Of a DNA stretch of 64,000 nt, positions 3,629-61,369 are shown one piece after another. Below the pieces are notes generated by a model. The model made no database searches and was not told the DNA's origin. It was given only the letters and a program-made list of their open reading frames with translations. Source of the DNA: Sorangium cellulosum So0157-2 (GTDB taxonomy: Bacteria; Myxococcota_A; Polyangia; Polyangiales; Polyangiaceae). The DNA lies in the NCBI RefSeq assembly GCF_000418325.1, contig NC_021658.1, positions 2,728,001 through 2,792,000 on the forward strand, given 5' to 3'. The position numbers and the translations under genes were made by a program. The first letter of the stretch is position 1; every line of letters begins with the position of its first letter.

Positions 3629-4173
3629 TTGACCTCGTCAGTAATGAAGCGAAACAGATCGGGAAACGACACAAACGAAGGAGCGCCGTTTCGGGGAGAT
3701 GGAAAGCACACAATGCGAGGGCGTCAAGGACGAATCTTTACGCTTGTTTCGGACGGCTGATGATTTCTTATGCAATCTGCTGCCTCCCTTCGCGCCGTGA
3801 GCGCCGGCGCCGCCGCCCCCCCATCCCATACCGGCCTGCGCTCCGGCGCGCTCCGATCCCCCTGACGACTCCCCCCTGGAGGGCGGCGCCTCCAGGCTGA
3901 GGGGGCGCGCCCTCAGCGCGCCGGCGCGGGCGCGGACCGCCCGGGCCGCGGGGCGCGCGGAGGCGCGAAAATGCCGGCGTGCGCGCGGCCGCGCGCCGGG
4001 ATCGGGGAGTGGCACGCTTCCTGTTTATAGGCGCTGCATGACGCTCGGCGCGGTTCAAACCGCGAGCAGGGCGACCCGGGCGACGGATGGACTCGACTCG
4101 GCGCACCCGCGGCGGACTGCCCGCGCGTCAGATCACGTGTTGTTTAACTAAATACCGGAAAGAGAGCTCAATC
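3629..4173. promoter_or_regulatory. Divergent intergenic region with two adjacent hairpins
   Basis: This 545-base gap separates two divergent secreted-protein genes and must hold both promoters. At 3875-3896 an inverted repeat (CCTGGAGG / CCTCCAGG, 6-base loop) is directly followed at 3897-3916 by a second (CTGAGGG / CCCTCAG, 6-base loop). Neither is followed by a T run, so they are not classical terminators. They could be operators, RNA leader structures or a relic. No convincing coding sequence is seen in the gap; the stretch nearest 4174 has AT-richer patches (about 4136-4170) that would suit a promoter. Confidence 0.45.
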
Positions 4174-4776
4174 ATGAAGCGTGCAATGATCCTCCTCGCC
4201 TCGTCCCTCGTGTCCTCGTTCGCGCTCGTGGGCTGCGTCGCCGACGCGACCGACCTCGACGCGGAGCTGTCCGGACCGGAGGAGGTCGAAGAGACCTCGC
4301 AGGCGCTGTGCATCTCCCCGCCGGCGGCCGACCAGACCGCGGCCCAGTCGAACTCGAGCGACGTCGGCAGCTTCACCCTCCGCGAGTCGCCGGACAACAC
4401 CTACTACAGCAGCAAGGGCAACTACGTCGTCGAGGTCACGAACGTGAAGAACGCGTTCGCGTCGACCCAGACGGCGATGGCGTACAGCGTCAACGCCGGC
4501 AAGTCGAAGAGCGTCTGCGAGCACACGACGACCACCGCGACGCTCTACGGCTTCGACGAGGTCGAGGGCTGCTGGGTGCAGATCGGCGCGACGAAGAGCA
4601 AGACCGGCGTGTACTACCCGGGCGGCGGCTTCATCCAGCCGAGCTGCGATGACGTCGTGAGCTGGTCCATCCCGAAGACGGTCACCAAGGTCCGCATCAA
4701 GGGCAAGTCGGTGCTCCAGACGACGTTCGGCCCGGCCGGTCAGAAGATCGCGGAAGGCACGAGCTGGAGCCATTGA
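4174..4776 (+). CDS. Small secreted lipoprotein of unknown function
   Basis: A 200-residue protein with a clear lipoprotein signal (MKRAMILL...FALVGC). After the lipidated Cys there is an acidic stretch ending in EEVEETSQALC, a junction also found in other exported proteins of this type of organism, then a beta-rich domain with four further cysteines (in SVCEH, EGCWV, PSCDD and after SQAL). The start at 4174 is chosen over an upstream in-frame ATG at 4087 because the signal peptide starts there and GGAAAGAGAG lies about 10 bases before it. I do not recognise the folded domain. It could be an adhesin-like or binding protein, but there is no specific evidence. Confidence 0.8.
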   Translation: MKRAMILLASSLVSSFALVGCVADATDLDAELSGPEEVEETSQALCISPPAADQTAAQSNSSDVGSFTLRESPDNTYYSSKGNYVVEVTNVKNAFASTQTAMAYSVNAGKSKSVCEHTTTTATLYGFDEVEGCWVQIGATKSKTGVYYPGGGFIQPSCDDVVSWSIPKTVTKVRIKGKSVLQTTFGPAGQKIAEGTSWSH

Positions 4777-5087
4777 TCCGGCGCGAAGGGCGGGGGAGCA
4801 GGCGCCGGCGAGCGGATGAAGCGGTCGATCGCCGCGGTCACCGACAACCGGCTGGTGGGCCTGCTCGTCTGGATCGTGGCTACGACCCTGCACGACGCGC
4901 CCCGACCCTCTCCGACCGCAACCTCGATCACGTCGACCCGGGGGCCGCCTCGCGGCGACCGCGAGCCGCTCGGGCCCTCACGGCGCGGCGCCGCCGGCCG
5001 CCGGTCGTCCGACCCGCCGCGCGCGGCGGCGGGCCACGGTGAGGTCAGCCGATCAAACCGCGACGGGGAACGGGTTATAGATGGGCC
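4777..5087. other. Intergenic stretch, no gene seen
   Basis: 311 bases between the small lipoprotein gene and the nitrilase gene. Both strands have short open frames, but none has a start with a ribosome site or a recognisable product. It presumably holds the nitrilase promoter. Nothing else stands out. Confidence 0.5.
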
Positions 5088-6077
5088 ATGACCATGACCC
5101 ATCCCCGATTCAAGGCCGCGGCTGTCCAGGCCGCCCCTGCCTTTCTCGATCTCGACGCCGGCGTGGACAAGGCCGTGCGCCTCATCGCCGAGGCCGCTGG
5201 CCACGGCGCCTCGCTCATCGCCTTTCCGGAGGCGTGGCTGCCCGGATACCCGTTCTGGATCTGGCTCGGATCACCGGCCTGGGGCATGCAGTTCGTGCAG
5301 CGCTACGCCGACCAGTCGCTCGAGGTGGGCGAGCGGCATATGGCGCGGCTGCGCGAGGCCGCGGCGCGGCACCGCATCCACGTGGTGATGGGCTACAGCG
5401 AGCGCGCCGGCTCGAGCCTCTACCTCGGACAGGCCCTCCTCGGCCCCGACGGCGGGCTCATCGCCGCGCGGCGCAAGCTCAAGCCCACGCACGCCGAGCG
5501 CACCGTCTTCGGCGAGGGCGACGGCGGCGACCTGAAGGTGCACGCCACCGCGATCGGGCGGCTCGGGGCGCTCAACTGCTGGGAGCACATCCAGCCGCTC
5601 GTGAAGCAGGCGATGTTCATCCAGGGCGAGCAGGTGCACGCGGCCTCGTGGCCCAGCTTCTCGGTCTACCGGGACATGGCCTACGCATTCGGCCCCGAGG
5701 TGAACGCCGCCGCCAGCCGGATCTACGCCGTCGAGGGGCAGTGCTTCGTCGTCGCCGCGTGCGCCACGGTCTCCGAGGAGATGACGGCGCTCCTCTGCGA
5801 CTCGCCGGAGCGGGCCAAGCTCCTCCTGTCCGGCGGCGGCTTCGCGATGATCTACGGTCCGGATGGCCGTGCGCTCGCGGAGCCGCTCGACGAGCGCGCA
5901 GAGGGCCTGATCTACGCCGACGTCGATCTCGGCCTGATCCGGCTCGCCAAGGCGGCGGCCGACCCGACGGGGCACTACGCGCGCCCCGACGTGCTCCGGC
6001 TGCTGTTCAACGAGACGCCCCACCGGCTTGTCGAGCGGTTCACCACGGAGCTCCACGAGGCGGAGCGGACCGCGTGA
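5088..6077 (+). CDS. Nitrilase (carbon-nitrogen hydrolase family)
   Basis: A 329-residue cytoplasmic enzyme expected to hydrolyse nitriles to carboxylic acid and ammonia. The three family residues are visible: Glu48 in IAFPEAWLPGYP, Lys130 in ARRKLKPTHAERTVFGEG, and the nucleophile Cys164 in ALNCWEHIQPL. The LPGYPFW segment and the CWEH context are those of true nitrilases rather than amidases or beta-alanine synthases. Length matches the family (about 310-370). ATG at 5088 and an in-frame ATG at 5094 are both possible. The gene stands alone between a lipoprotein gene and a convergent kinase gene. The actual substrate (aliphatic, arylaceto- or cyanide) cannot be decided here. Confidence 0.92.
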   Translation: MTMTHPRFKAAAVQAAPAFLDLDAGVDKAVRLIAEAAGHGASLIAFPEAWLPGYPFWIWLGSPAWGMQFVQRYADQSLEVGERHMARLREAAARHRIHVVMGYSERAGSSLYLGQALLGPDGGLIAARRKLKPTHAERTVFGEGDGGDLKVHATAIGRLGALNCWEHIQPLVKQAMFIQGEQVHAASWPSFSVYRDMAYAFGPEVNAAASRIYAVEGQCFVVAACATVSEEMTALLCDSPERAKLLLSGGGFAMIYGPDGRALAEPLDERAEGLIYADVDLGLIRLAKAAADPTGHYARPDVLRLLFNETPHRLVERFTTELHEAERTA

Positions 6078-6271
6078 GCGCCCGCGGCCGCCCGGCCGCG
6101 CGCCGCGCCGCCTGCGGAGATGTCAGCCACGAGCCTCCGCCGCCCGCCACACGGGCAGGCCAACACGTCCACGAGGTACACCCTGCGGAGCAGGCTCGCC
6201 CAGTCGATGCGCGCACCGACTGGCTTGGTGACGCCAGTGCCGAGGCTCGATGTGGCCTTTCTGAGTCTCTG

Positions 6272-7585
6272 TCAGCTGAGCAGGATGGCGATCAAGAGCG
6301 CGACGCTGAGCAAGAGCGATACGACGATGGACGCAATGAGCCACGGCCGCATCGCCGGCGAGGTCCACCTGGACGCGAGCGATGTCGCGCTCGTCTGGTG
6401 CCCCGGAGCACCCTGGTGCATCGTAACGGTCGGCTCGAGCTGCCTCGGCGCGCCCTCCATCGCCGCAATGGCCCCGTCGATGGCCGCGATCACGCTGGTA
6501 GCCGTCGGATAGCGTTGGATTGGGTCTCGCTGGACGAGCCGCATCACGATCGCCTCCACTTCGGGGCGGATACCTGATCCCGGAGCACGCTGGCGGAGGG
6601 GGGGCGCATCCTCGAGGAGCCGCTGCCGGAAGGAAGATTGGCCGTCGCTCGCGTCGAACGGGCTTCTCCCGGACAGCATTTCGTACAAGATGATTCCAAG
6701 CGCATAAAGATCTGCGCGAGCATCGACGGCATCCATGCCGCGCACGGCCTCCGGCGCGAGATACCTGAGCGTGCCGAGGACTTGGTCGGCGGCCGTGAGG
6801 TCCTGGCCTTTGCGCGTGGCCTCGCGGCTTTCGGTGGACAGGAGCTCTACGTTCACCTTCGCGAGGCCGAAATCGATGAGCTTCACCTGATCACGGGCGT
6901 TGAGAAGGATGTTCTGCGGCTTCACATCGCGGTGCACGATCCCCTTCGCGTGCACCGCTTCCAGAGCGGACGCGATCTGCCTCGCGATGTGGAGCGCGCG
7001 TCGCGTGGGGAGCGGCGCCGAGGCGATCACGTCCTGGAGCGGGGTGCCCTCGACGTACTCGAGGACGAGAAAATGCGACCGATCCGCGAGCTGACCGAAG
7101 TCGTTTGCCGAGACCACGTTCGGATGCTGGATATGCGCCCCCGCGATCGCCTCGCGCTCGAACCGCGCCACGATCTGGGGGAGGTTCCGGGCGCTCGGAT
7201 GGAGGATTTTGATCGCGACCTGCTTGCGGAGGTGCACCTGCTCGCCGCGGTACACCGCTCCCATACCGCCCTGCCCGATGAGCTCGTGGACGCGGTACCG
7301 CTCCGAGATCAAGCTCCCGATCAGCGCTGGCGCTTTGTTGTCCGAGCGCACCAACGTGGGTGCGTCGTCCGACCACGGCCGTGTCGCAGTCTCGATTTCT
7401 TCTCCAAGGGCCGAGCTTGAGAGCTCAACGACGGATGCGTCGCGTTGTTTCCCGAGCATCGGCACCGTGACGTCGTCGGTGCTTGAGCGCCCCTTGGGGG
7501 GAGTTATCCCTGGCATGCCGAGGAGTGTACACGCACAAAGGTGCCGAGAGCGGAGGAACCGCACCGCCGTCCGAGTGGACATCAT
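6272..7585 (-). CDS. Membrane-anchored eukaryote-like Ser/Thr protein kinase
   Basis: Hanks-type kinase of about 437 residues. Motifs in order: glycine loop GQGGMGAVYRG, catalytic Lys in VAIKILHP, HRDVKPQNILL, DFGLAK, and LAPEAVRG in place of the usual APE. The last about 22 residues form a single membrane helix (IASIVVSLLLSVALLIAILL) with almost no tail, so the kinase sits in the cytoplasm and the protein is C-terminally anchored without a sensor domain. GGAGGG lies about 10 bases before the ATG at 7585; a later ATG at 7516 also fits the conserved region and is the main alternative. The organisation resembles the next gene downstream on the same strand, suggesting a paralogous pair. Substrate unknown. 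Confidence 0.9.
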   Translation of the reverse strand: MMSTRTAVRFLRSRHLCACTLLGMPGITPPKGRSSTDDVTVPMLGKQRDASVVELSSSALGEEIETATRPWSDDAPTLVRSDNKAPALIGSLISERYRVHELIGQGGMGAVYRGEQVHLRKQVAIKILHPSARNLPQIVARFEREAIAGAHIQHPNVVSANDFGQLADRSHFLVLEYVEGTPLQDVIASAPLPTRRALHIARQIASALEAVHAKGIVHRDVKPQNILLNARDQVKLIDFGLAKVNVELLSTESREATRKGQDLTAADQVLGTLRYLAPEAVRGMDAVDARADLYALGIILYEMLSGRSPFDASDGQSSFRQRLLEDAPPLRQRAPGSGIRPEVEAIVMRLVQRDPIQRYPTATSVIAAIDGAIAAMEGAPRQLEPTVTMHQGAPGHQTSATSLASRWTSPAMRPWLIASIVVSLLLSVALLIAILLS

Positions 7586-7838
7586 GCTCAATCCACCCTC
7601 CGCACGGAAAAGCTGTGCAGTTCCGCGATGTTCGGGGACCTGGTTCCGTGCGCCGACATCAGCCTACAAGGATGACCACAGCGCATCGAGCCGTAGCTCG
7701 CTGGTCGCCGCCCGCATCGGGCGCCGCCCGCATCCCCGGAACCTCCAGCCCCGCGGGCGGGCGATCGGGGAGCTCGGCGGCGGCGTGCTCTTCGGCAGGC
7801 CGACACGGTACAAGCTAAGGCCGCCGCTTCTCACAGAG

Positions 7839-9317
7839 CTATTCCCATTGGAGCTCGGAGGGGTGGTAGGCTTTGAGGCCGTCAATCGGAATGGGCCCGT
7901 CGGGGGTGCCGCTGCACACTTTAACGCCCTCATCATTCGTGCGTACTGGATAGGCGTGTTTCAATTTTGACGTGACGCAAAATGGATACTTGCCGTCTTT
8001 CATGAGGAGGCGATACTTGCCATTGGGGGCGGGCCGGCGCGTAGGTAAGGGCGCAGCGGTCGGGGATGTCGGTAAGGGCCTAGCGGTCGAGGATGGTGTG
8101 CTGGTACTGGAAGACGTGGCCATCGTGCGAGAGCTACCGCTCGCCTTGTCCTCTTGAGATGTCTCATCGCCCGCGCTCTCGCGAGTGTCTTCGGCGGAGC
8201 CTTGCGAACGAACGACAAATAGTACAGCGGCAAGGAAAACGGCGACGACAAAAGAGCCAATCACTGCAATCATCAAGAATGGCGAACTCGAGCCCGCTTG
8301 TGGGCTGGTCGCGGCAGATTGAGGCGGCACGGATACGACCATGGGTGCCTGCCTCGCTTGGCCGGGAGCAGGAGCAGCCATCGTCGGGCCATCGACGCTG
8401 ATTGCAGACGACACGTCGGCTCGGAACGACGCTGGGGCCGGCGCGTGAGGGGCAGCATTGGCGCCCAAGACGCGCTCGATGTCTTCACGCATGGCGCGGG
8501 CCGTTGGATAGCGGCGCGACAGATCGAAGGCGAGCGCGCGGTCGACGATGGTGCAAACCTCTGGGCTGACAGAGGGCGCAACGGTGCGCAGGGCCGGCGC
8601 GGGCTGCGTCGCCATTTTGATGAGGAGCTCGCTCTCCGTGGAGCCCTCGTGCACACGGCGTTTCGCTAAAATTCGAAACATCGTCGCGCCAACGGCGAAG
8701 ATGTCGGCCCGCCCATCGATTTCGCCACCAGCGATTTGTTCGGGCGACATGTAAGGTATAGTTCCGAGCATCGCGCCGATGCGCGTGCGAACATTGGAGC
8801 CGCCCTGTCTCATTCGAGCAATCCCGAAGTCGAGGACCTTGACGCCGCCTGACGATGTCAAGAACAGATTGTCGGGTTTGATGTCTCGATGAACGATGCC
8901 AAGCCCGTGCGCGACATCGAGCACTTCGAGCACGGTCGAGGCAACGCGGAGCAGCTCGCGCTCCTCGATGCCGCCGGAGCGGTGGGCGCGCTTGCCGAGC
9001 GATTCGCCGTCGAGCAACTCCATCACCAAGAACGGCGAGCCATCTTCGCTCGTATCGATGTCGAGGACATTGACGGCTGCGGGGTGACCGAGCTGGTTCA
9101 CTGCGAGCGCCTCTTGCTCGAACCTGGCTCGAAGCTCCTTGGAGACGGCGATTTCCGGATGGAGGATTTTGATCGCGCAGCGCCGGCCAATCCTGTGTGT
9201 CGCCTCGTAAACTGCAGCCATCCCGCCGACGCCGATAAGCGAATCAATGCGCCATTTGCCCCGGAGGACCGTTCCGATTCGTGCTGTACAGTGCGCTAGC
9301 TGGGGATCGTCACTCAT
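7839..9317 (-). CDS. Membrane-spanning Ser/Thr protein kinase with small extracytoplasmic C-terminal domain
   Basis: About 492 residues from the ATG at 9317. The kinase domain fills the first about 270 residues: GVGGMAAVYEA, CAIKILHPE, HRDIKPDNLFL, DFGIAR, MSPEQIAGG. A proline/alanine linker follows, then one membrane helix (FLMIAVIGSFVVAVFLAAVL), a Ser/Thr/Pro-rich stretch and a short globular end with two cysteines (YPFCVTS and VKVCSG). This is the usual myxobacterial PknB-like layout with a possible sensor outside the membrane. The open frame runs far upstream, but that part has shadow-type composition. The start overlaps the stop of a small upstream frame as ATGA, which hints at translational coupling. 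Confidence 0.9.
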   Translation of the reverse strand: MSDDPQLAHCTARIGTVLRGKWRIDSLIGVGGMAAVYEATHRIGRRCAIKILHPEIAVSKELRARFEQEALAVNQLGHPAAVNVLDIDTSEDGSPFLVMELLDGESLGKRAHRSGGIEERELLRVASTVLEVLDVAHGLGIVHRDIKPDNLFLTSSGGVKVLDFGIARMRQGGSNVRTRIGAMLGTIPYMSPEQIAGGEIDGRADIFAVGATMFRILAKRRVHEGSTESELLIKMATQPAPALRTVAPSVSPEVCTIVDRALAFDLSRRYPTARAMREDIERVLGANAAPHAPAPASFRADVSSAISVDGPTMAAPAPGQARQAPMVVSVPPQSAATSPQAGSSSPFLMIAVIGSFVVAVFLAAVLFVVRSQGSAEDTRESAGDETSQEDKASGSSRTMATSSSTSTPSSTARPLPTSPTAAPLPTRRPAPNGKYRLLMKDGKYPFCVTSKLKHAYPVRTNDEGVKVCSGTPDGPIPIDGLKAYHPSELQWE

Positions 9318-9538
9318 TGAGGTCCAGGTTCCGATGTGTGCCGGATGCGAGGATAGGTAAAACATCCCCGCTGATCGGGCGGGGGCTCGACGATACCATG
9401 AGACGTTCTGCACCGGCAATGGAGCTTGAAGTGAAAGCCCTTCCCCTTCCACGTCTTGCCCTTCCCCTTCCACTTGCCCTTGCCCGCGGCGAGCAGCCCC
9501 GTCTTCGGATCGTGGACGAGCGGCATCGTGCCGCTCAC
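9314..9538 (-). CDS. Possible small Lys/Gly-rich protein coupled to the downstream kinase
   Basis: A 74-codon frame starting with GTG at 9538 and ending in a TGA that overlaps the kinase ATG (ATGA). The product has a repeated GKGKWKGKGKTWKGKGF stretch followed by two cysteines (HCRC). The frame stays open upstream to a stop at 9632-9634, so the start is uncertain. I recognise no family. The overlap argues for real translation, while the lack of a clear ribosome site and the simple repeat argue against it. It could also be a relic of a longer gene. Confidence 0.3.
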   Translation of the reverse strand: MSGTMPLVHDPKTGLLAAGKGKWKGKGKTWKGKGFHFKLHCRCRTSHGIVEPPPDQRGCFTYPRIRHTSEPGPQ

Positions 9539-9715
9539 GGCTCCGGCCTTGACAGGCTTCCGTGTAGAGGGAAGGCCGGATGCTTCGGCGGCGAGCTTGC
9601 GCTGCGTGCGGAGGCCAGCGATCCTGCCGGGTCACGCGGTGGGTGTGCCACGCGCTGCGTATGCAGCGTCCTCTCCGCTCCGTCTGCGCCTGGGCCGACC
9701 GGCTGCCCGCCGTGG

Positions 9716-11958: not shown

Positions 11959-13980
11959 TCACAGGAGCCCGGCGCCGACCCAGAGCCCGGGCTCGTAGGC
12001 CACGAGAACATCCACGTCGCTCGAGCCGAGCAAGAGAAAGTTCACCGGCGAGACACCGACGAACAGGTGCGGCGTGATCGGGAGCTGGATCCCCCACGCG
12101 AAGCGGCCGCCGAAGGCGCCGACGCTCTCGAAATACGGTGAGTCGAAGAAGATGCGGTAATAGCCTGGCGTGATCCCGACCGACATCTCGAGATGCGAGC
12201 CGACGCCCATCACGAGCCGAAGCGGCACGCCGGCCGCAACCTGATCGACGTCGGCGGTCGAGACGCTCCGGAGCTCGACCCCGATCTCGAAGCGGCGCGT
12301 CTCGCTCAGGCGCAGGCGCGCGAGCACGTCGAGATCCACGGACATGCCATCCTTGACCGCGAAGCGCGCCGGGACGAAGTAGCCGGAGATCCCGAGCGAG
12401 AGCGCCATCCGGCGCGCGTTGGCCTCCGCCTGGGGGCCTGTGCCGGGCTCCTCGGCCGCGGGCTCCGGAGGCGCTTTCGTCGCGCGCCCGGGCTGCCGTG
12501 CGGCGGCCGCGGCGGAGGGTGGGGGAGCCGCGGGGGAGCCGCCCGCCGAGGGCGGCGGGGGCGGGTAGGGCGGGGGAGGCCCGCCGGGCGGAGAGGGCGG
12601 GTACGGATAGGGCGGGGGATACGCGCCCGCTGGAGGCGGCGGGTACGGGTAGGGCGCGGGATACGCGCCGGCCGGAGGCGGCGGGTACGGATAGGGCGCG
12701 GGATACCCGCCCGCAGGAGGCGGCGGGTACGGGTAGGGCGCGGGATACGCGCCGGCCGGAGGCGGCGGGTACGGATAGGGCGCGGGATACCCGCCCGCAG
12801 GAGGCGGCGGGTACGGGTAGGGCGCGGGATACGCGCCGGCCGGAGGCGGCGGGTACGGATAGGGCGCGGGATACCCGCCCGCAGGAGGCGGCGGGTACGG
12901 GTAGGGCGCGGGATACGCGCCGGCCGGAGGCGGCGGGTACGGATAGGGCGGGGGATACGCGCCCGCAGGAGGCGGCGGATACGGGTAGGGCGCCGGAGCC
13001 GGTGCCGCCGCCGGAGCCCTCGGCGGCGCCACGGGCGGCGCCGAGCTCGCCGCCGCGGGCTTCGCGGCCGGGGGCGGCTCGGAGCGCGCCGGCTGCGCCG
13101 CAGCCTCCCCCGCGGCCAGGCTCAGGGCGGCGAGCGCCATCAGCGCGGGGGCCGCCGCGGCGCCGCCGCGAGCGCAGCGGGCGCGGCGCGCGCGCAGGAC
13201 GGCCGCCGCGAGGCCCAGCAGGAGCGCCAGCGAGACGAGCTGGGCGGTGCTCAGCCCCCCGTACACGCCGCGCCCAGCGTCCCCGCGGAGGAGCTCGACG
13301 AAGAACCGGCCGGCAGCGTAGAGCGCGAGCCACGTCCCGAAGGCGCGGCCGTCCCGGTGCCCCCGGGCGAGCCAGAGGGCGGCGATCGCGCTCGCCAGCA
13401 GCCCGAGCGCCGCCTCGTAGAGCTGCGTCGGGTGCACGGGCAGGCTCGGCGCCCCGAGGGGCACCCAGCCGGCGGCGACGTGGTCCGCCGCCGCGGGGCT
13501 GCCCGCGGGAAACCGGACGCCCAGCGCGCCCGCCGTGACGCGGCCGTAGTCGCACCCCGCGAGGAAGCACCCGGTCCGCACGCTGGCGTACGTGATCCCG
13601 AGCCCGGGCACGAGCCGGTCGAGGAACGGCAGCACCGGCGCGCCGCGGCGGCGCAGGACCAGGCCGGCGACGGCGACGCCCGCGAGGAGCCCCCCGTACG
13701 CGGCCCGGCCGGCGTGGAGCACCGGACCCCACGCGCCGCGCGCGAGCGCCTCGGGCACCGCGCGCAGCGCCTCGAAGGCGTAGCCGCCGAGGAGCGCGGC
13801 GCCGTAGCCCCACAGGAGCGCGCGACCCTCGACCCCGACGTCGCCCCGATCCCGGCGCACCAGCCAGAAGAACGCCGCCGACCCGAGGAGCCCAGCGACG
13901 GCGACCATCACCGCGTAGCTCGGCGCGAGCCACGGCGGCAGGCCGTGGCGCTCCAGCCAGAGCATCAGCGCCCGGCTCAC
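11959..13980 (-). CDS. Prolipoprotein diacylglyceryl transferase (Lgt) with Pro/Tyr-repeat and beta-rich C-terminal extension
   Basis: A 673-residue fusion. Residues 1 to about 270 are an Lgt-type membrane enzyme, which transfers diacylglycerol to the lipobox Cys. Family blocks are AAYGGLLAGV, SVRTGCFLAGCDYGRVT (with the catalytic-site Arg), HPTQLYEA and GRFFVELLRGD (Arg and Glu kept). Then come a hydrophobic, signal-like segment, about nine 14-residue Pro/Tyr repeats (PYPYPPPPAG type) and a C-terminal domain of about 190 residues with alternating beta strands, as in outer-membrane barrels. Ordinary Lgt has about 260-290 residues and no such tail. The GTG start at 13980 overlaps the stop of the upstream Cys-rich lipoprotein gene (GTGA), so the two are very likely co-translated. 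This may be a dedicated, not housekeeping, Lgt. Confidence 0.85.
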   Translation of the reverse strand: MSRALMLWLERHGLPPWLAPSYAVMVAVAGLLGSAAFFWLVRRDRGDVGVEGRALLWGYGAALLGGYAFEALRAVPEALARGAWGPVLHAGRAAYGGLLAGVAVAGLVLRRRGAPVLPFLDRLVPGLGITYASVRTGCFLAGCDYGRVTAGALGVRFPAGSPAAADHVAAGWVPLGAPSLPVHPTQLYEAALGLLASAIAALWLARGHRDGRAFGTWLALYAAGRFFVELLRGDAGRGVYGGLSTAQLVSLALLLGLAAAVLRARRARCARGGAAAAPALMALAALSLAAGEAAAQPARSEPPPAAKPAAASSAPPVAPPRAPAAAPAPAPYPYPPPPAGAYPPPYPYPPPPAGAYPAPYPYPPPPAGGYPAPYPYPPPPAGAYPAPYPYPPPPAGGYPAPYPYPPPPAGAYPAPYPYPPPPAGGYPAPYPYPPPPAGAYPAPYPYPPPPAGAYPPPYPYPPSPPGGPPPPYPPPPPSAGGSPAAPPPSAAAAARQPGRATKAPPEPAAEEPGTGPQAEANARRMALSLGISGYFVPARFAVKDGMSVDLDVLARLRLSETRRFEIGVELRSVSTADVDQVAAGVPLRLVMGVGSHLEMSVGITPGYYRIFFDSPYFESVGAFGGRFAWGIQLPITPHLFVGVSPVNFLLLGSSDVDVLVAYEPGLWVGAGLL
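12590..12990 (-). repeat. Tandem 42-base repeats (84-base higher-order unit) coding for Pro/Tyr-rich repeats
   Basis: About nine in-frame copies of a 42-base unit encode 14 residues of the type APYPYPPPPAGAYP. Units alternate between two versions (AGA and AGG), so the best-matching period is 84 bases and neighbouring 84-base units are nearly identical. The antisense strand of the array is also open. The uniformity suggests recent expansion by slippage or recombination. Confidence 0.9.
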
Positions 13981-25664: not shown

Positions 25665-28448
25665 TCACCAGGCCTGGTGCCAGACCTGATCGCGGTCGGC
25701 CACCACGCCGGCGCTCGAGCCATACAGGACGTTGACGTGGCCGTCGTTGTCGTCGCCGCCGCGCGAGATGTCCTCGCCGGGCGCGCCGATGGCCAGGTCG
25801 GCCTTGCCGTCGCCGTCGAAGTCGCCGGCGGCCAGCGCGTACCCGGAGCGGTCATCGTCCTCCAGGCTGCCCTCCACGCCCGGACTGTCCTGCGTGTACG
25901 CCGGGTCGCCGAGGGTCGACAGGCCCGTGGCGGTGCCGCGGAAGAGGTGCGTTATCCCGGCGTCGTCGTGGCCGTCGATGTCCTCGTGCGGCGCGCCGAC
26001 CGCCAGATCGGCCTTGCCGTCGCCGTCGAAGTCCCCTGACGCCAGGGCCCAGCCGAAGTGATCGCCGTCCGCGACGCTGCTGCCCACGTTCGGGGTGTCC
26101 TGGCTCAGCAGCGGATCCCCTGCGGCGGAGAGGCCCGACGCGGTGCCGCGGAAGACGTGCACCACGCCGCCGCCGCCGTGCCCGGCGAAATCCTCGTGCG
26201 GCACGCCGATCGCGAGGTCGGCCTTGCCGTCGCCGTCGAAATCGCCCGAGGCGAGCGCGTAGCCGAAGTGATCGCCGTCCTGCACGGTCTCGGCGACGTT
26301 CGGGCTGTCCTGGTGGAACATCGGATCGCCGACGGCCGACAGGCCCGCCGCCGTACCGCGGAAGACGTGCACCGCGCCGGCGCCGCCGTGCCCGGCGAGA
26401 TCCTCGTAGGGCGCGCCGATCGCCAGGTCGTCGAAGCCGTCGCCGTCGAAGTTGCCGGCGGCCAGCGACCAGCCGAGGCGATCCCCTTTCTCGACGCTGC
26501 CGGCCACGTTCGGGCTGTTCTCGTGGAACATCGGATCTCCGGCGGCCGACAGGCCCGCCGCCGTACCGCGGAAGACGTGCACCGCGCCGCCGTCGTCGTG
26601 GCCGTCCACGTCCTCGTCGGGCGCGCCGATCGCCAGGTCGGCGTAGCCGTCGCCGGTGAAGTCGCCGGCGGCCAGGGACCAGCCGAAATGATCGCCGCCC
26701 TCGACGCCGCCGGCCACGTTCGGGCTGTCCTGGTCCCAGCCCTGATTGCCGGCGCTCGTGAGCCCGGACGGAGAGCCGTAGAGGACGTAGACCGAGCCGG
26801 CGTCGTCGTCGCCGCCGATGTCCTCGCCGGGCGCGCCGATCGCGAGGTCGTCGAAGCCGTCGCCGTTGAAGTCGCCGGCTGCCAGGGCATAGCCGAAGCG
26901 ATCGTCGTTCTCGGCGCTGCCCACCACGCCCGGCGAGTCCTGGTGCCACAGCTGGTCTCCGCCGCTCGTCAGCCCGAGGATCGAGCCGTAGATCACGTTC
27001 ACGGCGCCCGCGTCGTCCGCGCCGTTGATGTCCTCGTAGGGCGCGCCCACCGCCAGGTCGGCGTAGCCGTCTCCATTGAAGTCCGCCGTGGCCAGCGCCC
27101 GGCCGAAATGATCGTCCTTTTCGGCCTTGTCCTCGGTGTGGCCGTCGGTGATCCGCTGCGCCGGCACCACCGCGCAGCGGTAGCTCGACGCCGGGGCCGG
27201 CGCGAGGTCGGGCTGGGTGCCCCCCGGGCAAGGATTGACGGGGTAGGGGTGGTGCGACGGCGCCTTGACGTTGGCGCAGTTGCCCACGCCGTAACGGTCG
27301 CAGTCCGAGGTCGTGTACGCCGTGACCTGCGCGGGGACGCCGCCCTCGCTGTGAACGGCGCTCACATCCATGCTGTCGCCGTCGAACTGGACGAGCAGGA
27401 AGTAGCTGTACGTCGCGGAGCCGGTGCGAAACCACGGGATCTGGACGCCGTTCACGGCGATGTTCCCCCTGTGGCCGGCCTGGCTGTGGATGTGCCCCGA
27501 GAAGATGCCGAGGACGTTGTATTCGAAGCCGGTGATGGCGCCGATGAACTCCGCGTCCGTGGTCGACATGTCGTCGCCGAAATCGTGCATGTTGATGACG
27601 GCGCGCTGCCCTTCGCCCACCGCGTCGGCGAGCTGGTTCCGGAGGAAGTCGATCGACTTCGAGATGTGGAAGTCGGGCTCCTCGTAGGTGGGGTGATTGT
27701 GGAGCTGGATGAAGCGGATCCCGTTCTTCGCGAACGAGTAGGCCACGCTGCCCGGATCATAAGCCTCGAGCTGGCCGCGGTGCTTCTTGATCCAGCGCTC
27801 CATCCACCGCCGCGACTCGTTCCCGCAGTAGTTGGATCCCTCGCCGGTCATCCGGTCGCACTCGGCGCACCCCTTGTCGCAATCGCAGGCGCCCACGAGC
27901 TCGCACAGGTCGCAGCCGGGGCTCGCCGCGCAATAGCCGCAGGCCTCGGCGATGTCCTGCGCCGAGGCGCCGCAGCTGTCGTGCACGTTGCTCCCGTAGT
28001 CGTGGTTCCCCAGCCCCGGGAAGACGTCGACCAGGAGGTCGTCTTCATACTGATCCTCGTACGCGGCCCACTGGTCGGGGCGGGCGAACGAGGTCAGATC
28101 GCCGTTGACGACGACCGCGCTTGGCGCGCTGTAGCCAGGAGGCGTCGCGCCCTTGACGAGCGCGTTGATCGCCTTGACCTGATCCCGGTTGGTCTTGTTG
28201 CCCAGGGCCTTGATGTCCGCCGACGAGAGCTTGGCCTTCGCGGCGTCCTCGCCCACGAGGTCGTCCTCGCTCCACCAGTATTGCGGATCGGAGGCGATGA
28301 CGACCGAGAACGGCGCCACGGCCTGGAGCGGCGCGGGGGCCTCGGCGAGGGGGGCGGGCGGCTCGACGTCGGCGGCCTCGCACGCGGCGAGGGCCATGGC
28401 GGTGCCCAGGGTGATGATGGACAGGAGGATCGGCGCTGCGCGTCTCAT
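25665..28448 (-). CDS. Secreted metallophosphoesterase lipoprotein with FG-GAP repeats
   Basis: A 927-residue exported protein. Signal ends at the lipobox LAAC. Residues about 45-400 form a calcineurin-like phosphoesterase: SVVIASDPQYWW, VVVNGDLTSF (GD), FPGLGNHDYGSN (GNHD), INMHDFGDD, GIFSGHIHSQAGH (GHxH) supply the dimetal ligands. A Cys-rich insertion (about 165-215) is probably disulfide-bonded. The C-terminal half carries seven FG-GAP repeats of about 60 residues, each with DFNGDGYADLAVGAPYED-like calcium loops, which probably form a beta-propeller for binding. No long-range partner is evident; the next upstream gene on the same strand is a serpin. Preceding purine-rich sequence (GGAGACC) supports the 28448 ATG. 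Confidence 0.92.
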   Translation of the reverse strand: MRRAAPILLSIITLGTAMALAACEAADVEPPAPLAEAPAPLQAVAPFSVVIASDPQYWWSEDDLVGEDAAKAKLSSADIKALGNKTNRDQVKAINALVKGATPPGYSAPSAVVVNGDLTSFARPDQWAAYEDQYEDDLLVDVFPGLGNHDYGSNVHDSCGASAQDIAEACGYCAASPGCDLCELVGACDCDKGCAECDRMTGEGSNYCGNESRRWMERWIKKHRGQLEAYDPGSVAYSFAKNGIRFIQLHNHPTYEEPDFHISKSIDFLRNQLADAVGEGQRAVINMHDFGDDMSTTDAEFIGAITGFEYNVLGIFSGHIHSQAGHRGNIAVNGVQIPWFRTGSATYSYFLLVQFDGDSMDVSAVHSEGGVPAQVTAYTTSDCDRYGVGNCANVKAPSHHPYPVNPCPGGTQPDLAPAPASSYRCAVVPAQRITDGHTEDKAEKDDHFGRALATADFNGDGYADLAVGAPYEDINGADDAGAVNVIYGSILGLTSGGDQLWHQDSPGVVGSAENDDRFGYALAAGDFNGDGFDDLAIGAPGEDIGGDDDAGSVYVLYGSPSGLTSAGNQGWDQDSPNVAGGVEGGDHFGWSLAAGDFTGDGYADLAIGAPDEDVDGHDDGGAVHVFRGTAAGLSAAGDPMFHENSPNVAGSVEKGDRLGWSLAAGNFDGDGFDDLAIGAPYEDLAGHGGAGAVHVFRGTAAGLSAVGDPMFHQDSPNVAETVQDGDHFGYALASGDFDGDGKADLAIGVPHEDFAGHGGGGVVHVFRGTASGLSAAGDPLLSQDTPNVGSSVADGDHFGWALASGDFDGDGKADLAVGAPHEDIDGHDDAGITHLFRGTATGLSTLGDPAYTQDSPGVEGSLEDDDRSGYALAAGDFDGDGKADLAIGAPGEDISRGGDDNDGHVNVLYGSSAGVVADRDQVWHQAW

Positions 28449-57950: not shown

Positions 57951-57989
57951 GCCAGGGCAAGCGCAGGCGCCGCGCGTGGCGCCCGCGGC

Positions 57990-60368
57990 GTGTCGGCCCG
58001 TGAGGAGAGGGGCGCGGTACGCCCTCGGACGTGGTATGACGTGAACCTGAGCATGCGGGAAGCGTTGCCGAGGGCCGATGTCGGGATTTTGACCTTCCGG
58101 GAGGACGAGCTCGAGGCCGTGCTAGAGCGGTTTCCCGGGGAGAAGTACGTCTCCACCCAGCGGGTGTACAACATCAGCCGGCTGCCGCTTGACGGAGGTG
58201 AGAGGTACACGATCGCGGTAACCCGCTGCGTTGCAGATTTCGCTAGCGGCGATGCCGTGCTGGCCTTCAACGAAATCGTCCAAGATCTGGCGCCGAACCT
58301 TCTTCTGATCGTGGGGATCGCGGTAGGGACGCCATCGGAGGATTACACACTTGGAGATGTGGTCGTCGCGACCGGTATAATCGACGCGAGCAAGAACGAA
58401 ATCCGTGGTTCCGGGGCCCTCACGCCGGAGCCTATGCACAAAGACGTTGTTAAGTGGGCATCCAACCTCCCAGCGCTGGTTGCGCCCGGGTGGAACGATG
58501 AGAAGCTTACAGGGCCAGCCCCCAGTATACCGCAACGATTCCAAGGGAACATATCATTAAAGAATGTCGTTCTTTCGTCGCTGAAGCACCAATTCGCTGG
58601 AGGGACAGCCTCCTATTACACTGTTCCGCGTCTGAAGCTTCGAGCCTCGCGCCTGGTGGCTGGTACAGTAGCAGCAAGTGACCATGCGCTGAGCGATTCT
58701 GATCTCGAATGCATTTATGAAAAGGCAGGGAGCGACCTCCGCGCAATTGAGTCTAAGTCCCTAGACGTCTACGGCGCAGCGCTGTTGTATGGCGTGCCCA
58801 CCATGTCGATCCGGGGCATCAATGAAATTGTCGGTATGGAGCGCGACCCGAAGTGGACTCGCTATGCATCCCGGGTGGCTGCGTCATTCGCATTGGCCTT
58901 CTTGAAGGCGCGTCCTATCGAGCCATACGAGCGCCCCGCACTTTTTACGGCAGCCACGGAAGCCTCCTCCGAGAGAGAGATCAGTCTTACAGCAGCATTC
59001 TCGGTGAAGCGCCTAACTCTTTCGTCCATTAGAGGGTTTCCTCTGCTCGATCTTCCTCTGAAGCTGCCGGAAAAACAGGAGCAGGGACAGTGGACCGTCA
59101 TCCTGGGTGACAACGGGATCGGCAAGACCACCATTTTACGTGCTCTCACGCTCGCACTTTCTCCGAGCGATGTAGTCCATGCCGTGCTGGGTAGGATGGG
59201 AGCCACTTCCCCGACGGTGCGAGCCGGCAGCGCGAAGGCCGTGATTCGCCTCCGAGCTCACGATGACGAAGATGACCTCACGACGCTCGCCCTGGAGCCG
59301 TCCCCAGGCGGCGAGGTCCTCCGGCGACGGACCTTCACCGAAGCGGCCATGCCCTTCATTGTGGCCTACGGCTCCCGCCGCGGCTCCGGCCTCCTCGACT
59401 CCGGACGCAGCGCCGAGCCCACGCCCCTGGCGGCCGTCGAAACCCTGTTCGACGAGGGCGCTAGCCTGATGCAGCCGGATTCATGGCTTATTCGGTGGCA
59501 GCTTGCTGCGCTGCAAGGCGGCAAGGGCTCGCGAGAGGCGCGCTTCTTCGATGCGATCCTCTCCACGCTGTGCGAGCTGCTTCCGGACGTGAAGGCGGTT
59601 CACGTGAGCGCCAAGGGGGTCGAGATTGAGGGCCCCACACTCGGCCGGGTGCCGCTCGGAGCGCTGAGCGACGGCTACCGGACGACCATGGGCTGGATCC
59701 TCGACATGGTGGCGCGCTGGGTCGAGGAGGCGCGGCGACGCAATCTCCAGGTCGATGGTGATTTTCACGAGAAGATGGCCGGCGTTGCCGTGATCGACGA
59801 GATCGATCTGCACCTTCATCCTCGGTGGCAGCGCGACGTGATCTCGATGGTACGCGGACACTTCCCGCGGATGAGCTTCGTGGTCACCACACACAACCCG
59901 CTGACGCTTCTCGGCGCGCGGCCGGGAGAGATCTACGTGCTGCGACGGGGTGCGCGAGGCGGCGTGGAGATCCTCCAGCGGGACCTCCCGCCCGGTGCGG
60001 GCGCCGAGCGGATCCTCACGGGCGAGTGGTTCGGCCTCCCGTCGACGCTGGACGACGAGACGCTGGACATGCTCGCCGAGCACCAGCGGCTCATCCGCGA
60101 CAGCGGCTTGGACGCACCCGAGGCGGTGAAGCTCGAAGAGGAGCTGCGGCGGCGGCTCGGGTCTTTCGCGGATACGCCGGTGGAGCGGCTGGCGCACGAA
60201 GCGATGGCGGAGCATGTCGAGAAGGATCTGCGCGAGCTGACGCCCGAGGAGCGGAAGCAGGCTCGGGCGAAGGTCGCGCAGATCCTTGATGAAAAGCCGG
60301 GTCCGGTGAAGCCGGCGCCGGTGAAGAGCAAGCCAAAGGCGAAACGACCCAAGCAATCTGCGGGTTGA
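57990..60368 (+). CDS. Nucleoside-phosphorylase-like domain fused to PtuA-like ABC-type ATPase
   Basis: A 792-residue fusion. Residues about 28-305 are a purine-nucleoside phosphorylase/MTA nucleosidase-like domain: LLLIVGIAVGTPSEDYTLGD, then AIESKSLDVYGAALL and SIRGINEIVG...KWTRYASRVAASFALAFL. Residues about 330-700 are an SMC/OLD-like ATPase: ILGDNGIGKTTILRAL (Walker A), PLGALSDGYRT (signature), VAVIDEIDLHLHPRWQ (Walker B), FVVTTHNPL (switch His). The tail is Lys/Pro-rich. The following gene is an HNH nuclease 8 bases on. This pair resembles Septu (PtuA/PtuB) but the N-terminal domain is additional. Starts GTG 57990 or ATG 58053 (before the domain) are both possible. The first about 1.2 kb is less GC-rich than the flanks, as in transferred DNA. 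Confidence 0.85.
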   Translation: MSAREERGAVRPRTWYDVNLSMREALPRADVGILTFREDELEAVLERFPGEKYVSTQRVYNISRLPLDGGERYTIAVTRCVADFASGDAVLAFNEIVQDLAPNLLLIVGIAVGTPSEDYTLGDVVVATGIIDASKNEIRGSGALTPEPMHKDVVKWASNLPALVAPGWNDEKLTGPAPSIPQRFQGNISLKNVVLSSLKHQFAGGTASYYTVPRLKLRASRLVAGTVAASDHALSDSDLECIYEKAGSDLRAIESKSLDVYGAALLYGVPTMSIRGINEIVGMERDPKWTRYASRVAASFALAFLKARPIEPYERPALFTAATEASSEREISLTAAFSVKRLTLSSIRGFPLLDLPLKLPEKQEQGQWTVILGDNGIGKTTILRALTLALSPSDVVHAVLGRMGATSPTVRAGSAKAVIRLRAHDDEDDLTTLALEPSPGGEVLRRRTFTEAAMPFIVAYGSRRGSGLLDSGRSAEPTPLAAVETLFDEGASLMQPDSWLIRWQLAALQGGKGSREARFFDAILSTLCELLPDVKAVHVSAKGVEIEGPTLGRVPLGALSDGYRTTMGWILDMVARWVEEARRRNLQVDGDFHEKMAGVAVIDEIDLHLHPRWQRDVISMVRGHFPRMSFVVTTHNPLTLLGARPGEIYVLRRGARGGVEILQRDLPPGAGAERILTGEWFGLPSTLDDETLDMLAEHQRLIRDSGLDAPEAVKLEEELRRRLGSFADTPVERLAHEAMAEHVEKDLRELTPEERKQARAKVAQILDEKPGPVKPAPVKSKPKAKRPKQSAG

Positions 60369-60376
60369 ACGGGAAC

Positions 60377-61273
60377 ATGCTCCGGTTCCGGCGTCCCAAG
60401 CCTCCCAGGAGGTTTGCGAAAGAGGTCGATGCGGCCCGACGCGCCGTGGCGCGCGCGATCGCCGCGGGGCAGGCGCCGGAATTCCCTCCGTTGTGGCGCA
60501 AGGAGGAGTACAAACGCGCGTTCGTCGCCGCGCAGCACGGCAAATGTGGCTACTGCGAGACGTACGCGCTGAACCACCCTCCCGCCATCGAACACTACGC
60601 GCCGAAAGGTGAGCTCGAGGACCTGGCCAACGATGGAATGGAAGCGGACGGGCTCTACGGCGTCCGGGAGCGTGACGCGCGACAGATCAGCGCGACCGGC
60701 TACCACTGGCTTGCCTATGAATGGAAAAACTGGTTGCTTGCGTGCGAGCGCTGCAACACGGGCTGGAAGCGGTCGCTCTTTCCGGTGCGAGAGCGTCCGC
60801 ACCCTTGCCCGCCGACGCCGGACCAGCCCTATACGCCGCTGCTACTGAGCCCGTTCGGCGTGGAAGATCCCGTCGAGCACCTGGAGTTCAGCGTGCTTGG
60901 CAATGTCATCGCCCGTCATGGGAGCGAGCATGGGGAGGCGACGATACGTACGCTCGGGTTTTCTCGCCGTGAATCGCTGCGCAAGATTCGGCATGGCTTC
61001 GCGGAGGACGCAACCCGGCACGCGAGAGGGCTCGAGCAGGCACTCGCCGACGACAAGCTCGATCGTGCACAGATTCACGCTGAAGCATTGATCTCGCTCG
61101 GTGGTGAGGAGCGCTTGCATGCAGGCATGGTGCGGAGCATCGTCCTGTCCAAGCTCGGCCTGCGCTGGTCCGAGATGGAGGAGCTGGCGGAGAAGATCGC
61201 CGCGAAGTCGCTTCCTCACGCCAAGGATCCGAGCCTCGGTACGGACAACAGGAAACGGGGGCGGAAGAGATAG
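60377..61273 (+). CDS. PtuB-like HNH endonuclease
   Basis: A 298-residue protein, second gene of the cassette, 8 bases after the ATPase stop. HNH motif: KCGYCETYALN...PAIEHYAPKGE (first Cys pair and the His), then WKNWLLACERCNTGWKRSLFP (second Cys pair and Asn), so four zinc Cys and the catalytic His-Asn are in place. The long insert between the halves and the helical C-terminus fit the Septu nuclease PtuB, which cuts nucleic acid when freed from the PtuA complex. The tail GTDNRKRGRKR is basic. ATG 60377 is preferred over the TTG at 60365, which overlaps the ATPase stop. Confidence 0.85.
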   Translation: MLRFRRPKPPRRFAKEVDAARRAVARAIAAGQAPEFPPLWRKEEYKRAFVAAQHGKCGYCETYALNHPPAIEHYAPKGELEDLANDGMEADGLYGVRERDARQISATGYHWLAYEWKNWLLACERCNTGWKRSLFPVRERPHPCPPTPDQPYTPLLLSPFGVEDPVEHLEFSVLGNVIARHGSEHGEATIRTLGFSRRESLRKIRHGFAEDATRHARGLEQALADDKLDRAQIHAEALISLGGEERLHAGMVRSIVLSKLGLRWSEMEELAEKIAAKSLPHAKDPSLGTDNRKRGRKR

Positions 61274-61369
61274 AGATCGTTCACAGTATCGGGATCGCTT
61301 CGTCGGCGCCTGCTCAGCGCCCCCGCGCTCGAAGCGTTCTGGCGGAACTTCCCCCCGAGCACCGCCCCT

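What the first reader, a model, noticed from the sequence alone, without database searches (positions are those of the whole stretch)
57990..61273. Septu-like pair in which the ATPase carries a nucleoside-phosphorylase-like domain
One gene joins a PNP/MTA-nucleosidase-like domain to an SMC/OLD-type ATPase with intact Walker A, signature, Walker B and switch-His motifs. An HNH nuclease with PtuB-like Cys and His-Asn motifs follows 8 bases later. The ATPase-HNH pair is the Septu layout. PNP-fold domains are known ATP nucleosidases in other anti-phage systems (for example Detocs). A single system with both nuclease and nucleotide-depleting potential would be new to me; whether it has been catalogued I cannot check.
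Basis: partly seen in the sequence, partly recalled or inferred. Interest (0 to 1): 0.88.

Follow-up and report, generated by a model that had tools for sequence, protein, structure and literature searches.

The report
Septu defence pair with phosphorylase-fold domain
A two-gene bacterial anti-virus cassette of the Septu type has an extra domain, related to nucleoside-cutting enzymes, on its ATPase; relatives carry a seemingly working version of that domain, but this copy has lost its key catalytic residues and so probably senses or gates rather than cuts.

Summary
Window 57990-60368 (+) encodes an N-terminal PNP/MTA-nucleosidase-fold domain joined to a PtuA ATPase; a PtuB-type HNH gene follows at 60377-61273. 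A model of the domain (pLDDT 85) matches MTA/SAH nucleosidases first. The same PNP-PtuA + HNH order was found in another Myxococcota genome (L078; its HNH breaks off near the contig end) and in a genome from the Planctomycetota draw (L155, complete). PNP-PtuA fusion arose at least twice: a PNP-TPR-PtuA in the window's genus lies on another branch. The nearest other PtuAs mostly carry STAND-type N-termini. At the same site two congeners hold a different ATPase pair, like candidate defence HEC-01, and a third has no insert.

Of 35 domain sequences aligned at both catalytic columns, 34 keep Glu and 34 keep Asp; the window has Lys and Glu. L078 and L155 keep both, so a double effector stays possible there. 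Best reading: a Septu variant whose PNP domain gates the PtuA-PtuB nuclease, by catalysis in relatives, by binding or structure here. New variant of a known kind; function untested.

The parts
57990..60368 (+). PNP-PtuA fusion gene, 792 aa as the longest frame; likely true start GTG 58041 or ATG 58053
   Evidence: frame and translation; start candidates; start choice judged by eye from relatives
58080..58901 (+). N-terminal PNP/MTA-nucleosidase-fold domain, residues 31-304
   Evidence: PF01048 E 9e-5, below its cut-off; AF2 pLDDT 85.3; Foldseek 6aym E 5.5e-14; profile to 4qez E 6.4e-13
58107..58109 (+). Glu40, the position of MTA-nucleosidase Glu12: kept
58323..58325 (+). Val112 in the GIA(G)G loop, where the other sequences have Gly, Ala or Ser
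58755..58757 (+). Lys256 at the Glu174 position, which is Glu in 34 of 35 aligned sequences
58824..58826 (+). Glu279 at the Asp197 position, which is Asp in 34 of 35 aligned sequences
58971..60284 (+). PtuA ATPase domain, residues 328-765
   Evidence: PADLOC PtuA E 2.8e-59; PDB PtuA 8ee4 E 3.6e-20
59106..59132 (+). Walker A, GDNGIGKTT
59664..59681 (+). signature-like LSDGYR
59784..59822 (+). Walker B, VAVIDEIDLHLHP
59880..59900 (+). switch-His motif, VVTTHNP
60377..61273 (+). PtuB-type HNH nuclease, 298 aa
   Evidence: PADLOC PtuB E 9.8e-36; 50% identity over 271 aa to the HNH of L155
60542..60757 (+). HNH core: KCGYCE, IEHYAPK, WKNWLLACERCN
57952..61361 (.). variable-site insert between an esterase gene and a downstream minus-strand gene; about 50 bases in its place in G476, another ATPase pair in G477 and G479; edges uncertain by about 15 bases
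   Evidence: GC 0.638 against 0.720 and 0.773 in the flanks

Best explanation
It is a Septu-type anti-phage cassette whose PtuA carries an N-terminal PNP/MTA-nucleosidase-fold module. SHOWN by sequence: the domain order, intact ATPase and HNH motifs, relatives in other genomes, change of the PNP catalytic Glu and Asp in this copy, and a site with exchanged cargo. INFERRED: PtuA and PtuB form the nuclease complex that cuts tRNA or DNA and stops the infected cell; the N-terminal module is the gate that keeps the complex off or turns it on, standing where most of the nearest relatives have a STAND-type module. In the catalytically intact relatives the PNP domain may cleave a nucleotide and so act as a switch (for example by lowering the ATP that holds PtuA back) or as a second effector. 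In the window's protein it most likely works without catalysis, by binding a nucleotide-like ligand or by shaping the oligomer.
For: Same order PNP-PtuA then HNH in L078 (PtuA 49%, PNP 33% identity) and L155 (PtuA 54%, HNH 50%). The PtuA tree puts window, L078 and L155 in one clade (99/98) beside five STAND-type PtuAs (81/87), so PNP and STAND stand in the same position. Catalytic columns: 34 of 35 sequences keep Glu and 34 of 35 keep Asp, the window being the exception at both; L155, not in that count, keeps both. Fold kept in the model. Literature, passages seen: Walker and HNH mutants of an E. coli Septu lose immunity, and it cuts tRNA-Tyr (PMC13096335); retron Eco7 PtuAB degrades tRNA-Tyr (PMC11555353); retron Ec83 keeps PtuAB inhibited until release (PMC12948488). 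Other cargo at the same site: a pair resembling HEC-01 of the PADLOC library.
Against: No function was tested. Asp to Glu is conservative and some activity might remain. The PNP module occurs with EAD5, EAD7, Fic, SAVED and HNH, and published work treats PNP as an effector or signal maker (passages), which favours an effector rather than a gate in the intact relatives. The window PNP does not group with those of L078 and L155 in the tree (a single clade is not rejected, p 0.35), so its history may be separate. STAND-type N-termini of some relatives are weak or absent in Pfam. The ATP brake on PtuA is recalled from Li et al. 2024, whose text was not held.
Confidence: 0.5

Rival explanations
1. 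Double effector: PNP depletes ATP or another nucleotide while PtuB cuts nucleic acid, both released by the same trigger.
For: PNP is listed as an ATP-degrading domain (Cap17) in CBASS, Detocs, pAgo, DRT8 and NLR-like systems (table in PMC10952713; meeting report PMC9966839). L078 and L155 keep the catalytic Glu and Asp. The L078 protein matches the PADLOC PN-superfamily Effector model at E 1.7e-19, over residues 15-258.
Against: The window copy has Lys and Glu at these positions. Most nearest PtuA relatives have a STAND-type module at this position rather than another effector enzyme.
Confidence: 0.25
2. The window PNP domain is a relic or only a scaffold: it has lost catalysis and contributes fold or oligomer contacts, with no ligand.
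For: Catalytic positions changed and long branch (1.74) in the PNP tree. PtuA forms a trimer of dimers (passage in PMC11980606), and PNP-fold enzymes are oligomers (recalled).
Against: No stop or frameshift over about 300 codons, third-position GC above second in each 60-codon block though only just in one, confident fold, and the Glu12 position is kept. The PtuA part of the window is also faster than its sisters (0.54 against 0.26 and 0.22), so the long branch is not special to PNP.
Confidence: 0.2
3. Not a defence system: an ATPase-nuclease pair with a housekeeping or DNA-repair role.
For: The neighbours scanned are not defence genes (an esterase upstream, two unassigned genes downstream), so no defence island was seen around it.
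Against: Patchy presence: of 6 genus genomes only the window's own shows a full-length match; the same site holds about 50 bases or another defence-like pair in congeners; both proteins match PADLOC Septu models best.
Confidence: 0.05

Closest known systems
Septu (PtuA-PtuB), including the retron I-A effectors (retron Eco7/Ec78)
   Same: SMC/OLD-type ATPase followed at once by an HNH nuclease; Walker, LSDGYR, TTHNP and HNH motifs; PADLOC PtuA and PtuB as best matches; sequence match to solved PtuA.
   Different: About 300-residue PNP-fold domain at the N-terminus. NCBIfam PtuA and PtuB models, named for retron Ec78, are matched far below their cut-offs (116 of 500 and 24 of 150 bits). None of the five proteins scanned (the pair, one upstream, two downstream) is a reverse transcriptase.
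PNP ATP-nucleosidase effectors (Cap17 of CBASS and Detocs)
   Same: PNP-superfamily domain in a multidomain defence protein.
   Different: Fused to PtuA; catalytic Glu and Asp changed here; no Detocs kinase or regulator and no CBASS cyclase among the five proteins scanned; the wider window was not scanned.
STAND-PtuA fusions of Myxococcota (L035-L039, L136; found here)
   Same: Nearest PtuA relatives; large N-terminal part, PtuA at the C-terminus, HNH gene next.
   Different: STAND-type NTPase and a long further region in place of PNP (clear in L035, weak in L037-L039, not in Pfam output for L036, by eye in L136).
EAD- and death-domain-linked PNPase conflict proteins (PMC7159879, PMC8195603; passages)
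   Same: The best-scoring PNP module found in the genome draws is of this kind, EAD5-PNP in L031.
   Different: No effector-associated domain in the window protein in the Pfam output; PtuA instead.

Membership tests
Septu (PtuAB) | PtuA-type ATPase with Walker A, signature, Walker B and switch His | tested here: met
   PADLOC E 2.8e-59; motifs; PDB PtuA E 3.6e-20
Septu (PtuAB) | adjacent PtuB-type HNH nuclease with Cys, His and Asn motifs | tested here: met
   PADLOC E 9.8e-36; motifs; Pfam HNH is below its cut-off and no PDB sequence match at E 0.1
Septu (PtuAB) | protection against phage dependent on both proteins | not testable with these tools
   needs a bench test
Retron I-A (PtuAB with RT and msDNA) | match to the NCBIfam retron Ec78 PtuA and PtuB equivalog models | tested here: not met
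   116.2 of 500 bits and 24.3 of 150 bits
Retron I-A (PtuAB with RT and msDNA) | reverse transcriptase and ncRNA beside the effectors | not tested
   no RT or Rfam search was run; the five proteins scanned show none
PNP/MTA-nucleosidase superfamily | fold | tested here: met
   model pLDDT 85.3; 598 PDB matches at E 0.001 or better, the listed 50 all MTA/SAH or futalosine nucleosidases, query TM 0.43-0.57
PNP/MTA-nucleosidase superfamily | catalytic residues (E. coli MTAN Glu12, Glu174, Asp197; numbering recalled, Glu12 and Asp197 mutants named in PDB titles) | tested here: not met
   Glu12 position kept; Glu174 position Lys, Asp197 position Glu
ATP-nucleosidase effector (Cap17) | cleavage of (d)ATP | not testable with these tools
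   needs an enzyme assay; changed motifs argue against it for this copy
Detocs | sensor kinase and response regulator partners | tested here: inconclusive
   the three neighbours scanned by Pfam show none; wider neighbourhood not scanned

The most novel reading that the evidence does not exclude
PtuA is a general output platform with exchangeable N-terminal triggers. In PNP-PtuA the trigger is a nucleotide-cleaving enzyme that, once released, destroys the ATP that holds PtuA-PtuB off: a self-licensing, two-step switch from nucleotide loss to nuclease. The window's copy has turned this enzyme into a pseudoenzyme sensor of a phage-altered nucleotide.
Probability: 0.2. Interest if true: 0.85.

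Novelty: new variant of a known kind. Interest (0 to 1): 0.62.

Why it matters
PNP ATP nucleosidases and Septu nucleases are each known, but this joins them in one protein, seen in three genomes of apparently two phyla, with a further independent PNP-TPR-PtuA. That the same position is taken by STAND-type, PNP, PNP-TPR or metallophosphoesterase-like modules suggests a simple rule for how Septu is switched on; a review table gives 'Unclear' in what reads as the activation column for PtuAB (passage of PMC12198126). The natural contrast between catalytically intact (L078, L155) and changed (window) PNP makes effector-or-sensor directly testable.

Tried and rejected
Direct scan of genome contigs with the window PNP found no relative. 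Alignment A1 was too diverse for the search for related loci; a closer set of three (A2) worked in genome contigs (22 loci) and found no relative in viral contigs. Plasmids and phages: no place covers 80% of the fusion (95 of 72,556 and 7 of 50,697 records match). A full-length model of the fusion was poor (pLDDT 62.2, much of the ATPase under 50) and is not used. N-termini of L123, L124 and L125 looked PNP-like by eye but hhalign gave no support; dropped. L126 is only a possible degenerate PNP (hhalign E 5e-5, probability 67%; HMM E 0.001); it is not counted among the fusions, and its match was too short for the census, as were L063 and L088; by eye it lacks both catalytic residues. L121, L122 and L132 N-termini remain unknown. 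A retron was not tested. The tRNA scan of the window found none.

Literature limits: no paper in the held library has Septu, PtuA and nucleoside phosphorylase together. Nine papers were seen as passages only. Most subscription papers are not held, so absence from print is not shown. Rousset 2023 and Li et al. 2024 were not read; they are known here through other papers' passages or recalled.
Full report
WHAT IS THERE. The 792-codon frame at 57990-60368 (+) and the HNH frame at 60377-61273 (+) are as described. Pfam gives PNP_UDP_1 at residues 31-304 (E 9e-5, 22.4 bits, cut-off 25.1) and AAA_21 further on (E 6.1e-13). PADLOC gives PtuA (E 2.8e-59, residues 328-765) and PtuB (E 9.8e-36) as best matches. 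NCBIfam retron PtuA and PtuB models are hit far below cut-off. The ATPase matches solved PtuA 8ee4 at E 3.6e-20 and retron PtuA structures; the HNH has no PDB sequence match at E 0.1. Likely starts are GTG 58041 or ATG 58053, judged by eye from where relatives begin.

THE PNP DOMAIN IS REAL. A profile of 17 relatives including the window (A3) matches 40 distinct PDB sequences at E 0.001 or better, led by MTA/SAH nucleosidases (4qez, E 6.4e-13). AlphaFold2 on that alignment gives pLDDT 85.3 and pTM 0.86. Foldseek finds 598 PDB chains at E 0.001 or better; all 50 listed are MTA/SAH or futalosine nucleosidases, though with 12-17% identity, query TM-scores of only 0.43-0.57, and rmsd of 11-15 in all listed rows but one (4.4). 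The single-sequence PDB search of the window domain alone was weak (best E 0.073).

BUT ITS CATALYTIC RESIDUES ARE CHANGED. One search aligned 38 distinct domain sequences whose match spans at least 180 residues; three (L060, L083, L048) lack the catalytic columns, leaving 35. The position of MTA-nucleosidase Glu174 is Glu in 34 of 35 and Lys256 in the window; the Asp197 position is Asp in 34 of 35 and Glu279 in the window. The Glu12 position is kept (Glu40). The window has Val112 where others have Gly, Ala or Ser. PDB titles name Glu12Gln, Asp197Asn and D198N mutants of such enzymes; the role of Glu174 in ribose binding is recalled. The census used a profile that contains the window itself; shorter matches (L126, L063, L088) were left out, and L155 and L159 were fetched later. 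So the window domain is probably a pseudoenzyme; Asp to Glu alone would be less telling than both together.

RELATIVES WITH THE SAME ORDER. L078 (VBLP01000091.1, a Deltaproteobacteria MAG that treekit places in Myxococcota) has PNP-PtuA in one frame (PtuA 48.9%, PNP 33.3% identity) and an HNH frame (48% over 91 aa) that loses similarity and stops about 100 bases before the contig ends, so whether it is cut, misassembled or broken cannot be told. L155 (G1157, drawn as phylum of G495, whose locus L076 is a Candidatus Brocadia MAG, hence Planctomycetota by inference) has PNP-PtuA 6547-8772 (62% to L078, PF01048 E 2e-18) and a full HNH 8785-9609 (50% to the window's over 271 aa). Both keep Glu and Asp. 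In L155 the cassette lies between direct repeats of 1,021 bases, 93% identical.

HOW RARE. The first phylum draw (377 genomes) and the order draw (183, overlapping) show a match over both domains only in the window's own genome; 71 of a class (overlapping) none; 235 of L078's phylum (overlapping) only L078 itself; draws of 347, 343 and 350 genomes in three other phyla gave 0, 1 (L155) and 0. Thresholds differed (E 1e-3 to 1e-25). These searches score few candidates per genome and miss distant fusions: L130 was listed only by its ATPase part.

OTHER N-TERMINAL MODULES ON PtuA. L130 (G476, window's genus) is PNP-TPR-PtuA (PF01048 E 4.1e-12, above cut-off) with an HNH frame next (weak, E 9e-6). 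L035-L039 and L136 are long frames with PtuA at the C-terminus and HNH next; P-loop STAND/NACHT-like N-terminal matches are clear in L035 (E 3.6e-7), weak in L037-L039, and absent from Pfam output in L036; L136 was read by eye. L129 and L134 have AAA_16/STAND-type N-termini, L131 a calcineurin-like phosphoesterase (E 2e-6). The PtuA tree (22 chosen of the 61 rows available) joins window, L078 and L155 (99/98), beside five STAND-type PtuAs (81/87); L037 is not in that group. Holding L130 with window and L078 is rejected in a PtuA tree of 36 rows (p 2.5e-33) and in a PNP tree of 28 rows (p 2.8e-4), hence at least two fusions; the groups were named after a first tree was seen, which the test does not allow for. 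In the PNP tree L078 and L155 join (99/100), the window is an unresolved long branch, and one clade of the three is not rejected (p 0.35; 30 rows, ten of the 38 census rows left out and L155 and L159 added).

THE PNP MODULE ELSEWHERE. It is joined to EAD5 (L031), Fic (L032), TPR (L054), WD40 (L074), STAND-like NTPase (L076), HNH_2 and EAD7 (L089) and an annotated SAVED domain next to a CBASS cyclase (L090). This is a shuffled conflict-system module.

THE SITE. In the window's genus (6 genomes searched, 4 with the esterase, own included) the spot between esterase and downstream gene was read in the three others. G476 has about 50 bases there; G477 and G479 carry about 1.8 kb. In G479 this holds an ATPase (HEC-01A E 2.8e-23, AriA 1.6e-19, and weaker PtuA matches, best 6.6e-14) and a small protein weakly like HEC-01B (E 1.1e-5); in G477 only the small protein was scanned (E 4.5e-5), its ATPase was seen in the frame list. 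The window's insert has GC 0.638 against 0.720 and 0.773 in its flanks; the stretch 58300-59199 is lower still (0.55-0.57).

MECHANISM. See Best explanation. PtuA-PtuB as a nuclease dependent on Walker and HNH residues, and its tRNA-Tyr target, come from passages of PMC13096335 and PMC11555353; another E. [quoted passage not shown] PNP as ATP-degrading effector comes from a table in PMC10952713 and a meeting report. That ATP inhibits PtuAB is recalled from Li et al. 2024.

VERDICT. A real Septu variant seen in three genomes; the defence role is likely but untested; the double-effector claim is not supported for this copy and open for its relatives.

Noticed in passing
L038 (G000:C1:9980000-9992000), frame 2508-7343 +: The window's own genome holds a second, long PtuA fusion with a weak STAND-type N-terminus and an HNH match next to it.
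   Followed up: partly
L130 (G476:C7), 3553-7933 +: A PNP-TPR-PtuA protein with catalytic positions kept and an HNH frame next, in the window's genus, on a separate branch.
   Followed up: yes
L131 (G380:C111), 3508-6048 +: PtuA with an N-terminal calcineurin-like phosphoesterase domain (PF00149 E 2e-6).
   Followed up: no
L126 (G381:C115), 3828-5981 +: PtuA with a possible degenerate PNP domain (hhalign E 5e-5, probability 67%).
   Followed up: partly
L089 (pTiBo542), 4599-6029 +: HNH_2-PNP-EAD7 protein, followed by a 1,142-aa protein without Pfam match and an annotated response regulator: a possible Detocs-like locus.
   Followed up: partly
L090 (Nostoc plasmid pNPM2), 4995-7621 +: PNP joined to an annotated SAVED domain beside a CBASS cyclase.
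   Followed up: no
L142 3295-5131 and L144 566-2370: HEC-01-like ATPase plus small partner at the window's site in two congeners.
   Followed up: partly
L155 4459-5479 and 10021-11041: Direct repeat of 1,021 bases, 93% identical, around the PNP-PtuA-HNH cassette.
   Followed up: no
window 12540-12997 and 25767-27114: Tandem arrays: 42-base unit, about 11 copies; 210-base unit, about 6 copies.
   Followed up: no
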